DNA of 64,000 nt from assembly GCF_948472415.1 (NCBI RefSeq), contig NZ_OX419519.1, positions 1,054,001 through 1,118,000 on the forward strand, read 5' to 3'. Position numbers and translations under genes: made by a program. Each line of letters starts with the position of its first letter. The stretch's first letter is position 1. The stretch is from Kitasatospora fiedleri (GTDB lineage: Bacteria; Actinomycetota; Actinomycetes; Streptomycetales; Streptomycetaceae). Positions 7,585 to 13,107 of the stretch are shown here, piece after piece. The notes below the pieces were generated by a model. The model searched no databases and had not been told where the DNA came from. It saw only the letters and a program-made list of their open reading frames with translations.

Positions 7585-9651
7585 TCAGCGGGCGGCCTGG
7601 TACGCGCGTCCGGCGGCGGTGGCGGTCGTCCCGTCGGTGAACAGGCCGCTGCTGAGCTTCGCCGGGTCCGCGCCGAGGCCGAACCAGGCGTAGCGCTGGA
7701 GGTAGGGCAGCGCGTCGAGGGCCTTGGTGGAGGCGGTGACGAAGGCGGCCTGCTGGTCGGCGGTCGGAAAGCGGGTGCCCTGGGAGAAGTCGATCAGGGC
7801 GTACTCGGTGAGCCAGATCGGCTTGTGGTAGCGCTGGTGGACCGCCTCCAGGTAGGAGGTCAGCTGCTGGACGGCCTGCGGGGTGCGGAAGTCACCGCCG
7901 TACCAGTGCAGCGTGATGAAGTCGACCCGGTAGCCCTTGGCGGCGGCGCCGGTCATGAAGCGGTCCAGCCAGCCGCCGGGCGTGTCGGCCCCGTACGCGA
8001 CGGCCGGGCTGCCCAGGGTCTGCCCGGCCTGCATCAGCTTCGGCCACAGCTCCAGCGCCTGGTCGACCGTCATGTTCGACTGGGCGGCCATGTCGGGCTC
8101 GTTGAACCCGAGCAGGTAGGGGCCGTTGGCGCGGGCCTGGGCGAGGGCGGCGTCGGTGACCGAGGACGCGCCCCAGATCATCGGGACGAAGGAAGCCGAG
8201 GCGGGCGTGGTGATGCCGGGGTGCTGCGGGGCCCAGGTGTAGTACCAGCCCGCGCCGGAGGCGGCGAGCGCCTGGTTCACCCCGGTGAAGGACCACACGC
8301 CGACGCCCTTGCGCGCGGAGGTGGCGACGGGGTTCTGCTGCGCCGGGGCGGCCGCGGGGGACGACGCGGACACGGACGCCGACGCCGACGCGGAGCCGGA
8401 CGGCGAGGACGAAGGCGAGGACGAGTCGGACGGCAAGGACGAGTCGGACGGCGAGGGCGAGTCGGACGGCGAGGGCGACGGTGACGTTCCGTCGAGGACC
8501 GGCAGCGCCGTCGCCTCGGCGGCCGTGGGCGGCGCGACGGCCCCGGCCGGTACGGGCGCCGCCGCCGGGGCGGCGCCCTGCCCCGGCACCAGCTCGGCCC
8601 CGGTCAGGACGGCGGCGGCCACCAGCGCCACCGCCGCCACCCCGCCCAGCACCGGCTTGGAGAGCAGCGGCTTCGTCCGGGCGGAGCGCGGCCGCCGGTG
8701 GCCGGAGCCCCGCCGGGGCCGCTGCCCGCCCGGAGCGCCGCCGGAGGAGCCGGAGGAACCGGAGGAACCGGACGGGCCGTCACCGGCCGGGCCGGAGGGA
8801 CCGGCAGGATCGGAGGGCGCGCCGGGGTGCGTGCCGTCCAGGGCGAGCGCGGCGAGGATGCGGGCCGAGTCGAGGCTCGGCGGGACGGCCAGCAGCGGCA
8901 GGCCGTACAGCAGCCGTTCGGCGGGGAGCAGTTCGCTGCGTCCGCCGGTGCAGCGTTCGCAGTCGCGCACGTGCCGGGCCAGGCGCTTGCGCCACAGCGG
9001 GCCGGGGGTGCCGTCCCAGGTGGCGGCGGTCTCGGCCAGTCCGGGGCAGCGCGGGTCGGCGGCCAGGGCGCGCACCAGCAGGCGGGAGAGGTCCAGTTGC
9101 TTCTTCATCCGGCCGGTCCGGACGGCGGCGTGGCCGGAGCTGAGGCCGAGCGCGGCGACCAGGTCGGCCTGTTCGAGTTCGCCGGTCTCCTTGAGCCACC
9201 AGAGCGCGAGCAGTTCGCGGTCGTCGGGGTCGAGCCAGCGGGTGGCCTCGGCGATCTCGCGGCGCTGTTCGGTGAGGCCCAGGCGCAGGACGGTCAGCCC
9301 GGCGAAGTCGAGCGCGGGGTCCGGTATCGCCTCGGCCTCCTCCAGCCGGGCGGACCGGTCGAGGGCCGCGGCCCGGTCCTGCTGGCGGTTGCGGACCTGC
9401 CGGACGGCGATGGCCACCAACCAGGACCGGAAGGCGGCCGGGTCCCGCAGGTCGGGCAGTCCGCGGACCGTGCGCAACAGCGTCTCCTGTACGACGTCGT
9501 CGGTGTCGGCGTGGCCGTTCAGCGCGCGGCCGACGATGTTGTAGACCAGCGGCAGGCTCTGGGCCACCAGGTGTTCCAGCGCCTGCCGGTCCCCGGCGCG
9601 CGCCGCCGCCACCGTTGCGGCGTCGGGTCCACTGCGTCTGGTGTGCGGCAT
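7585..9651 (-). CDS. ECF sigma factor fused to zinc-binding module, TM helix and GH128-like glucanase domain
   Basis: Single 688-residue protein with an unusual order. Sigma region 2 lies at about 15-90 (DTDDVVQETLLRTVRGLPDL) and sigma 4 at about 130-190. A zinc anti-sigma type motif follows, H227-x3-C231-x2-C234. After a Gly/Pro/Ser linker come one membrane helix (about 332-353), a long Ser/Pro extracytoplasmic stalk, and a C-terminal Asl1-like glycoside hydrolase domain (about 440-688). The latter has GFNEPDM and IWLTEYALID, where the two glutamates fit the acid/base and nucleophile of GH128-type beta-1,3-glucanases. Sigma factors with built-in anti-sigma and carbohydrate domains are known in actinomycetes (ECF53-like), so this is probably a one-protein sensor that releases its sigma domain when the outer domain meets glucan. 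Confidence 0.8.
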   Translation of the reverse strand: MPHTRRSGPDAATVAAARAGDRQALEHLVAQSLPLVYNIVGRALNGHADTDDVVQETLLRTVRGLPDLRDPAAFRSWLVAIAVRQVRNRQQDRAAALDRSARLEEAEAIPDPALDFAGLTVLRLGLTEQRREIAEATRWLDPDDRELLALWWLKETGELEQADLVAALGLSSGHAAVRTGRMKKQLDLSRLLVRALAADPRCPGLAETAATWDGTPGPLWRKRLARHVRDCERCTGGRSELLPAERLLYGLPLLAVPPSLDSARILAALALDGTHPGAPSDPAGPSGPAGDGPSGSSGSSGSSGGAPGGQRPRRGSGHRRPRSARTKPLLSKPVLGGVAAVALVAAAVLTGAELVPGQGAAPAAAPVPAGAVAPPTAAEATALPVLDGTSPSPSPSDSPSPSDSSLPSDSSSPSSSPSGSASASASVSASSPAAAPAQQNPVATSARKGVGVWSFTGVNQALAASGAGWYYTWAPQHPGITTPASASFVPMIWGASSVTDAALAQARANGPYLLGFNEPDMAAQSNMTVDQALELWPKLMQAGQTLGSPAVAYGADTPGGWLDRFMTGAAAKGYRVDFITLHWYGGDFRTPQAVQQLTSYLEAVHQRYHKPIWLTEYALIDFSQGTRFPTADQQAAFVTASTKALDALPYLQRYAWFGLGADPAKLSSGLFTDGTTATAAGRAYQAAR

Positions 9652-9810
9652 GGGTCCATTCCTCTACGTGGGGTGGGAGCTGCGGCGGGATCGCGCTCCG
9701 TCCTGGGAGACCGGCCCCGGGGGTGGCCGCCAACAGAAATTCTCCGCCCGGGCCGGAATTTGTGTTGGCGGGCGCCCCCGGCCGCGGTCTCCGATACGTG
9801 CGCGACGCAC

Positions 9811-9872
9811 CCCGGGAACGTCCCGGGAACGTCCCGGGAACGTCCCGGGAACGTCCCGGGAACGTCCCGGGA
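9811..9872. repeat. Tandem 11-bp repeat, five and a half copies
   Basis: The unit CCCGGGAACGT is repeated perfectly at 9811, 9822, 9833, 9844 and 9855 with a partial sixth copy. Each GGGAACGTCCC register is a near-palindrome, so the block is also a ladder of imperfect dyads one helical turn apart. It lies about 160 bp upstream of the sigma-glucanase gene on the minus strand and is not coding in any convincing frame. Confidence 0.9.
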
Positions 9873-10108
9873 GCACCCCGCCGAGCGCCCCGAGGAACAG
9901 GAGGAGGACCGAGGATGGCACGCCGACCCCGCCGCCCCGCCTCCGGCACCCCTGAACCAGGCGGCCGGGCGGCCCCCACCGCCCGTCCGCCCCCACCCCT
10001 GCCGGCCCGGGCCCCACCCGGTCCCACCCCGGCCCGGCAGGGCACGCCGGGCACCGCGCCCTTCCCCCTGCACGGGGCGCGGTGCCCGGCTTCTCCGCGT
10101 TCGCGCCC

Positions 10109-10260: not shown

Positions 10261-12869
<2,609 letters not shown>

Positions 12870-12917: not shown

Positions 12918-12931
12918 GGAGAGCGCTCTCC
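12918..12931. promoter_or_regulatory. Palindromic operator, copy 1
   Basis: Perfect 14-bp palindrome GGAGAGCGCTCTCC, 49 bp upstream of the start of the CBM32/beta-helix gene. The central GAGCGCTC is the core of LacI-family sites such as the Streptomyces CebR box, which controls polysaccharide use. No lacI-type gene lies in this window. Confidence 0.6.
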
Positions 12932-13093
12932 AGGCGGAGTGTCACGCCAGGATGCACCGGGCGTCAAGCCTGCCGTGGGGGTGGCTTGAAACCTCGGCTT
13001 CACCTGGGGGAAACGCCGCCGCATCAGGTTAGTTCATGGCGAGAGAAAAGTAGAGACCCTGACGCCAACATCTCGATTTCCCGGGATCACGCC

Positions 13094-13107
13094 GGAGAGC
13101 GCTCTCC
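13094..13107. promoter_or_regulatory. Palindromic operator, copy 2
   Basis: Second perfect copy of GGAGAGCGCTCTCC, 176 bp (centre to centre) from the first, in the same intergenic region between the secreted hydrolase and the antiporter genes. Two identical copies could allow looping or shared control of both directions. Confidence 0.55.

What the first reader, a model, noticed from the sequence alone, without database searches (positions are those of the whole stretch)
7585..9651. Sigma factor, anti-sigma-like zinc motif, membrane helix and glucanase in one polypeptide
An ECF sigma factor whose own C terminus crosses the membrane and ends in a GH128-like domain with both catalytic glutamates would couple outside beta-glucan to transcription without a separate anti-sigma factor. 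The HxxxCxxC motif sits between sigma 4 and the helix, where an anti-sigma domain would be.
Basis: partly seen in the sequence, partly recalled or inferred. Interest (0 to 1): 0.7.

Follow-up and report, generated by a model that had tools for sequence, protein, structure and literature searches.

The report
Membrane-tethered sigma factor with glucanase sensor
A soil actinobacterium has one gene that joins a transcription-switch protein to an outside-facing enzyme domain for fungal-type glucan; the general design is already known, but DNA signals in related genomes suggest that it turns on its own gene and, in some relatives, separate copies of the same enzyme.

Summary
One 688-codon ORF (9651-7585, minus strand) encodes an ECF sigma factor, a zinc anti-sigma-type motif (C-x24-HxxxCxxC), a positively flanked hydrophobic helix, a Ser/Pro linker and a GH128 subgroup I domain, 58% identical to the solved AmGH128_I, with both catalytic glutamates (E518, E616). 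All 66 fused ORFs, from 65 of 80 actinobacterial loci, keep these motifs. The architecture is published (ECF52/ECF53 'one-component' sigma factors), so the protein is a new member of a known kind. What I add is a predicted regulon. A promoter, TGTTRTCC-N14/15-[CG]GTCTCC, scores well before 45 of 66 fused genes; it also precedes 8 of 10 stand-alone GH128 genes and several DUF1996 genes, and a variant faces thaumatin-like genes. Versions with a CAP sensor share it with a neighbouring CAP gene. In the window the strict form occurs twice, back to back before this gene, and not before the neighbouring GH55 glucanase gene. Best reading: a glucan-gated membrane sigma factor, released by proteolysis, that amplifies itself and, in relatives, secreted glucan-active proteins. 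Inhibition, ligand binding and release are inferred.

The parts
7585..9651 (-). Whole fused gene: ECF sigma / zinc anti-sigma-like segment / TM helix / Ser-Pro linker / GH128, 688 aa
   Evidence: single ORF in 65 of 80 related loci
9331..9621 (-). Sigma region 2 (residues about 11-107)
   Evidence: Sigma70_r2 at 28-92; helices; local match to E. coli sigmaE region 2, 4lup_A, TMt 0.86
9061..9270 (-). Sigma region 4 (residues about 128-197)
   Evidence: sigma70-ECF profile runs to residue 186; helices 128-197
8902..9060 (-). Zinc anti-sigma-like segment (residues about 198-250) with putative ligands C202, H227, C231, C234
   Evidence: invariant in 54 of 54; C-x24-HxxxCxxC in 66 of 66
8596..8652 (-). 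Predicted membrane helix (residues 334-352), N-in/C-out by the positive-inside rule
8323..8595 (-). Ser/Pro/Ala-rich linker, presumed extracellular
   Evidence: composition; pLDDT under 50 over most of it
7588..8322 (-). GH128 subgroup I domain (residues 444-688) with catalytic E518 and E616
9706..9735 (-). Predicted sigma-dependent promoter of the fused gene: -35 TGTTGGC, -10 GGTCTCC; -35 box begins 84 nt upstream of the ATG
   Evidence: same form in close relatives L015, L016, L018, L019
9763..9792 (+). Divergent copy of the same promoter; in Streptomyces relatives a -10 variant (GGTCACC) in this arrangement faces a thaumatin-like gene, here no convincing gene follows
10261..12869 (-). Upstream neighbour: two F5/8C domains plus GH55 beta-1,3-glucanase, split between two reading frames in this assembly; not a predicted target
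12919..13106 (.). Two GAGAGCGCTCTC palindromes upstream of the GH55 gene (12919-12930 and 13095-13106), LacI-family-like operators (label recalled)
   Evidence: expected 0.00 in the window

Best explanation
A single-chain signalling protein of the ECF52/ECF53 kind. Shown by sequence: an ECF sigma factor, a zinc anti-sigma-like segment, a predicted membrane helix, a flexible linker and a GH128 domain with both catalytic glutamates. Inferred: the zinc segment folds back on sigma and holds it inactive at the membrane. The GH128 domain, outside, engages beta-1,3-glucan (fungal or oomycete walls, callose, laminarin), which leads to regulated proteolysis near or in the helix and then removal of the zinc segment. 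Free sigma then drives TGTTRTCC-N14/15-[CG]GTCTCC promoters. Predicted by comparative genomics: the first target is its own gene (positive feedback). In relatives the targets also include stand-alone GH128 enzymes, DUF1996 proteins and probably thaumatin-like proteins, all apparently exported. In this genome only the gene's own divergent promoter pair is a convincing site.
For: Conserved architecture, 66 ORFs. Invariant zinc-ligand pattern. GH128-I fold and catalytic residues. Promoter: score >=13.5 in 45 of 66 upstream regions against 1 of 3262 flanking windows. Strict pattern: 3 sites in the 8.07 Mb genome, 2 of them here, control 1; the third lies inside a 594-codon frame of GC3 0.94. In the window 2 found, 0.03 expected. 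In 20 relatives: 49 sites against 6 for the reversed control. By my tally, 34 of these 49 lie before the fused gene (19), divergent from it (5), before stand-alone GH128 genes (6), DUF1996 genes (3) or a second sigma fusion (1). The same sigma/zinc/TM chassis carries CAP, AbfB, beta-helix or Lcl_C modules elsewhere, as expected of an interchangeable sensor.
Against: No expression, binding or proteolysis data. The window's own promoter (TGTTGGCG) scores only 11.5, a level reached by 165 of 3262 background windows; its support is the strict pattern, its divergent twin and the same form in close relatives. Two of 66 fused genes (second gene of L005, L076) lack the promoter, and L045 and L071 of the 10 stand-alone GH128 loci do too. 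15 of the 49 sites have no convincing target, and the 20 genomes were chosen by me. Pfam does not call the zinc finger in this protein. The AlphaFold models do not show the segment docked in a known inhibited pose: whole-length sigma matches among the top rows have rmsd 11-17 A. In this genome no second GH128 domain was found, and no site outside the own intergenic region looks like a promoter.
Confidence: 0.68

Rival explanations
1. The GH128 domain is not the sensor but a surface-tethered enzyme; the signal is something else (redox or zinc state of the C202/H227/C231/C234 site, envelope stress), and the glucanase is carried along.
For: Both catalytic glutamates are kept in 66 of 66, as expected for a working enzyme. 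The three cysteines are all in the zinc motif.
Against: Relatives with the same sigma/zinc/TM chassis carry modules that are not glycosidases, such as AbfB, and a GH128 sensor goes with GH128 targets while a CAP sensor goes with a CAP target in the cases read.
Confidence: 0.15
2. Two working proteins: the sigma part and the outer domain are made or processed separately and constitutively, so the fusion is not a sensor.
For: In L032 (Streptomyces sp. P3) sigma and GH128 lie in different frames, and in the own-genome paralogue the CAP domain lies in another frame than sigma. PMC5826349 reports that in S. clavuligerus a stop codon separates the outer module of the SCO4117 orthologue, perhaps a sequence error (passage read).
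Against: Leaving out the 10 stand-alone GH128 loci, 65 of 70 loci have one ORF; of the other 5, 4 are cut by contig ends and 1 is frame-split. The frame breaks lie in low-complexity GC-rich linkers, where sequence errors are likely.
Confidence: 0.1
3. The sigma factor acts broadly in development, like SCO4117, and glucan sensing by GH128 concerns the cell's own polymers rather than food or fungal prey.
For: The studied ECF52 protein SCO4117 controls secondary metabolism, aerial mycelium and sporulation (PMC5826349, abstract and passages).
Against: The predicted regulon is narrow and mostly of exported proteins, not developmental genes.
Confidence: 0.12

Closest known systems
ECF52/ECF53 sigma factors of Actinobacteria (SCO4117 of Streptomyces coelicolor is the studied ECF52 member)
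   Same: ECF sigma with C-terminal zinc finger, membrane helix or helices, Pro-rich region and an outer carbohydrate-related domain; one review says some ECF52/ECF53 proteins have predicted glycosyl hydrolase domains (PMC8999054, PMC10766802, PMC5826349; passages read); autoregulation proposed for SCO4117
   Different: The outer domain here is GH128 subgroup I with intact catalytic residues, where SCO4117 has a carbohydrate-binding module. Group membership could not be scored because the ECF group models are not available here. A GH128/thaumatin/DUF1996 regulon is not in the passages I read.
SigI/RsgI of Clostridium thermocellum
   Same: Outer CBM or GH sensor domains (CBM3, CBM42, PA14, GH10 and others) on RsgI control a sigma factor for cellulosome genes through stepwise proteolysis (PMC12203970, abstract and passages read)
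   Different: There sigma and anti-sigma are two proteins, and SigI is not an ECF sigma (recalled); here sigma, anti-sigma-like segment and sensor are one chain. I did not look specifically for a counterpart of RsgI's self-cleaving periplasmic domain; Pfam shows nothing between sigma and GH128 above cut-off.
IutY of Pseudomonas putida (ECF243)
   Same: Sigma fused to its membrane anti-sigma domain and activated by proteolysis (Prc, RseP) (PMC8999054, passage read)
   Different: It serves iron-siderophore cell-surface signalling; no enzyme domain outside is described in the passage.
AmGH128_I, endo-beta-1,3-glucanase of Amycolatopsis mediterranei (6uaq)
   Same: Same fold (Z 37.8, rmsd 1.3, 58% identity over 240 residues), same two catalytic glutamates
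   Different: Solved as an isolated enzyme domain; here it is the outer end of a sigma factor.

Membership tests
ECF sigma factors | sigma 2 and sigma 4 regions without region 3 | tested here: met
   TIGR02937 sigma70-ECF 57.8 bits, cut-off 42.9; sequence and fold matches to sigmaE, AlgU, SigW
ECF52/ECF53 group | domain order sigma, zinc motif, membrane helix, Pro/Ser-rich region, outer carbohydrate-related domain | tested here: met
   definition from PMC8999054, PMC10766802 and PMC5826349
ECF52/ECF53 group | score against the group's own sigma model | not testable with these tools
   group models and the founding papers are not held; ECF53 is my best guess, not a test
Zinc anti-sigma (ZAS) domain | upstream Cys/His about 25 residues before HxxxCxxC | tested here: met
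   C-x24-HxxxCxxC in 66 of 66; the definition of the spacing is recalled
Zinc anti-sigma (ZAS) domain | match to the zf-HC2 profile | tested here: inconclusive
   not in the window protein; 2 of 54 members at E<0.01
Zinc anti-sigma (ZAS) domain | binds and inhibits its sigma | not testable with these tools
   needs biochemistry
GH128 subgroup I | fold and both catalytic glutamates | tested here: met
   Z 37.8 to 6uaq; E518 and E616
GH128 subgroup I | beta-1,3-glucanase activity | not testable with these tools
   needs an assay
SigI/RsgI | anti-sigma RsgI as a separate protein | tested here: not met
   one polypeptide; filed as an analogue only

The most novel reading that the evidence does not exclude
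A general rule for this class: the outer module of each membrane-tethered sigma is a copy of the exported protein that the sigma controls (GH128 sensor with stand-alone GH128, CAP sensor with CAP), under one shared promoter type with positive feedback. The cell would thus use a tethered, catalytically intact sample of its own enzyme to test whether substrate is present before secreting more, perhaps with catalysis itself as part of the signal.
Probability: 0.4. Interest if true: 0.68.

Novelty: new member of a known kind. Interest (0 to 1): 0.45.

Why it matters
It would make one-protein polysaccharide sensing by a sigma factor directly testable: a named ligand class, a named promoter, named catalytic residues, and relatives with swapped sensors as ready controls. 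In soil actinobacteria it points to how beta-1,3-glucan, a main polymer of fungal walls, could switch on glucan-active proteins. As an architecture it is already in reviews; the predicted regulon and the sensor-target likeness are what is added here.

Tried and rejected
GH55 neighbour as target: rejected for this genome, because no match to TGTTNNC-N15/18-GTCTCC lies before it, the loose score there is at most 11 with a gap of 16-17, and palindromes of another type are present. Of the window and loci L001-L079, GH55 is found only in the window and in four Kitasatospora loci (L015, L016, L018, L019).

Thaumatin gene in this genome: none by tblastn in the window or by PF00314 in the genome. In one search nothing rang in the control genomes either; the same search found it in 3 of 5 genomes, so it works. 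The open frame at 9915 (+) behind the divergent promoter, 137 aa of Arg/Pro/Ala, is not a convincing gene.

A hairpin reading of the promoter region (DNA fold, z -2.4, 3 of 200 shuffles as good) is better explained by two back-to-back promoters. Weaker sigma hits in the own genome (E 1.4e-7 to 5.8e-5; loci L083-L085) were read and set aside. ECF205 was considered because its named example is from S. hokutonensis, as is L001; rejected because the review gives ECF205 a SnoaL-like extension. The structural second look lists only glycoside hydrolases because that domain fills the list; sigma was therefore modelled alone.

Literature: ten searches plus one malformed query. None showed a GH128/thaumatin/DUF1996 regulon for such a sigma in its listing, but the founding ECF papers are not held, so I do not claim it is unpublished.

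Rows dropped before counts: of 80 loci, 10 hold a stand-alone GH128 gene, 4 are cut by contig ends and 1 is frame-split; the 66 ORFs come from the other 65. itself kept the best 80 of 141 relatives (79 loci). Of 143 sites against 24 control sites in 61 genomes of the window's genus (site total recounted, control total added by hand) I read 20 regions of my own choice with 22 sites: 7 sigma fusions, 2 adjacent CAP genes, 2 CAP-like lipoproteins (by eye) and 11 others or none. This sample is not random. Genome names are withheld there; I call the genus Kitasatospora from the near-identity of L015.

Full report
What is there. On the minus strand, 9651 to 7585, one open frame of 688 codons encodes, in order, an ECF sigma factor, a segment with C202-x24-H227-x3-C231-x2-C234, a hydrophobic helix at 334-352 with nine K/R in the 33 residues before it and none in the 33 after it, a Ser/Pro/Ala linker and a GH128 domain. 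The three cysteines named are the only ones in the protein. The GH128 domain is 58% identical over 240 residues to the endo-beta-1,3-glucanase AmGH128_I (Z 37.8). Its E616 aligns with the residue exchanged in the E199Q crystal entry, and E518 falls at E102 by the residue offset of the structure alignment.

Is it real? A genome scan kept 79 loci of relatives (the best 80 of 141 matches). With the own genome's copy, 65 of 80 loci hold 66 uninterrupted fused ORFs. The other 15 are 10 stand-alone GH128 genes, 4 contig-end truncations and 1 frame split. All 66 keep HxxxCxxC, NEPD and [LVI]TE[YF] and the C-x24 spacing. A hydrophobic span of mean hydropathy 1.6 or more is found in 65 of 66, with more positive charge before it than after it in 57 of 66. 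Carriers include Streptomyces, Kitasatospora, Planotetraspora, Acrocarpospora, Actinoplanes relatives, Cellulomonas and Actinosynnema. Against: Pfam does not name the zinc finger here, zf-HC2 reaches E<0.01 in only 2 of 54, and AlphaFold leaves the membrane span at low confidence.

Structure. The full-length model has pLDDT 74 and pTM 0.43, with the GH128 domain at high confidence. A model of residues 1-265 (pLDDT 81, pTM 0.53) matches sigmaE/RseA, AlgU/MucA, CnrH/CnrY and SigW/RsiW sigma chains, but with rmsd 11-17 A over the whole length in the top rows; region 2 alone fits well (4lup_A, rmsd 1.7). The single domains are therefore clear and the inhibited arrangement is not shown.

Promoter. 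Upstream regions of the fused genes share TGTTRTCC, a gap of 14 or 15, and [CG]GTCTCC. A simple consensus score reaches 13.5 in 45 of 66 and 11 in 64 of 66; in those 64 the -35 box begins 55-126 nt before the start. The level of 11 is weak by itself (12% of mononucleotide shuffles reach it). In 3262 windows from the same loci away from the gene, 13.5 is reached once, 12.5 by 18 and 11.5 by 165. The window's own site (TGTTGGCG, GGTCTCC) scores 11.5, which alone would be weak. Its stricter support: TGTTNNC-N15/18-GTCTCC occurs twice in 64 kb with 0.03 expected, the two copies standing back to back at 9706-9735 (-) and 9763-9792 (+). A close form of the pattern has three sites in the whole 8.07 Mb genome, two of them here (control 1), and the third lies inside a 594-codon frame of GC3 0.94.

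Who else carries it. In 20 genomes reached through my loci the strict pattern gave 49 sites against 6 for the reversed control. My tally of these 49: 19 before the fused gene, 5 divergent from it, 6 before stand-alone GH128 genes, 3 before DUF1996 genes, 1 before a second sigma fusion, and 15 unassigned or inside genes. Of the 10 stand-alone GH128 loci, 7 score 13.5 or more (scanned over 550 nt) and an eighth, L048, has the strict pattern; L045 and L071 do not. The stand-alone protein of L043 has an F5/8C domain by Pfam; L035 and L132 look alike by eye, and export is judged by eye from their N-termini. Five Acrocarpospora genomes and one Sphaerisporangium genome hold both the fused gene and the stand-alone GH128 gene. 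Divergent genes are thaumatin-like in Streptomyces and Planotetraspora (tblastn; PF00314 for L020 and in three genomes; L002 and L003 by eye), with a -10 variant GGTCACC in Streptomyces. They are F5/8C-DUF1996 proteins in four of five Acrocarpospora loci and in Sinosporangium (Pfam for L051, L062 and L058; L052 and L053 by eye; L056 differs).

Interchangeable sensors. The same sigma/zinc/TM chassis, 46-63% identical to ours in the sigma part, carries CAP (own genome at G000:C1:960242 by Pfam; L140 by eye), AbfB (seven loci by eye, one of them by Pfam), right-handed beta-helix (two loci, one by Pfam), Lcl_C (one, by Pfam) or an unassigned module (L141). In the window's genus, CAP-sensor sigma genes carry the promoter, and in two regions they sit beside a CAP gene with the same promoter (L181 by Pfam, L182 by eye). 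A genus scan found the pattern in 54 of 61 genomes, 143 sites against 24 control sites (totals added by me, sites recounted). I read 20 chosen regions only, and 11 of their 22 sites precede other genes or none. Sensor-target likeness is therefore a pattern with clear cases and not yet a measured rule; thaumatin-like and DUF1996 targets do not resemble the GH128 sensor.

The neighbour. 10261-12869 encodes two F5/8C domains and, in a second frame, a GH55-type domain closely matching 4pew (2.6e-213; listed as a putative secreted protein, the GH55 beta-1,3-glucanase label is recalled). It lacks the strict promoter (loose score at most 11) and has two GAGAGCGCTCTC palindromes upstream, which I read, from recall, as LacI-family operators.

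Mechanism. Shown: the anatomy and its conservation, and a conserved promoter-like element. Inferred: inhibition by the zinc segment, glucan as ligand, proteolytic release. The proteolysis model is the one proposed for ECF48/ECF52/ECF53 and shown for IutY (PMC8999054, passages), and resembles RsgI signalling, where outer CBM and GH10 domains report on polysaccharides (PMC12203970, abstract and passages). For SCO4117 a truncated sigma part had a lesser developmental defect than the knockout and a 1.3-fold higher transcript, which its authors read as autoregulation (PMC5826349, passages).

Novelty. PMC10766802 (passage) states that some ECF52 and ECF53 proteins have predicted glycosyl hydrolase catalytic and carbohydrate-binding domains, citing papers not held here. 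The protein is therefore a new member of a known kind. The predicted promoter and regulon were not seen in ten literature searches (listed under Tried and rejected), which does not prove that they are unpublished.

Noticed in passing
window 10261-12869: The F5/8C-GH55 glucanase gene is split between two reading frames at about 11.5 kb in this assembly; sequence error or a broken gene.
   Followed up: partly
window 9811-9872: Perfect 11-bp tandem repeat CCCGGGAACGT, 5.6 copies, just behind the divergent promoter; helical-turn spacing, function unknown.
   Followed up: no
window 12919-12930 and 13095-13106: Two exact GAGAGCGCTCTC palindromes upstream of the GH55 gene, perhaps operators of a LacI-type repressor.
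   Followed up: partly
L082 (own genome C1:960242-960982 and downstream): Paralogous sigma/zinc/TM protein whose CAP domain lies in another frame than sigma; promoter-like CGTTATCC-N14-GATCTCC upstream.
   Followed up: partly
L005 5986-10129: Two fused sigma-GH128 genes in tandem in a Frankia MAG; the second lacks the promoter.
   Followed up: no
L001, L020-L027, L030, L031, L039: Thaumatin-like genes beside the fused gene in Streptomyces, often a second one downstream as well; of 5 genomes searched with PF00314, 3 have hits, and every hit lies on the contig of the fused gene.
   Followed up: partly
L186, L188, L189, L197, L198, L193, L199: In the window's genus the same promoter pattern also precedes alginate-lyase-like, ricin-repeat-like and metalloprotease-like proteins (by eye), perhaps targets of sigma factors with other sensors.
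   Followed up: no
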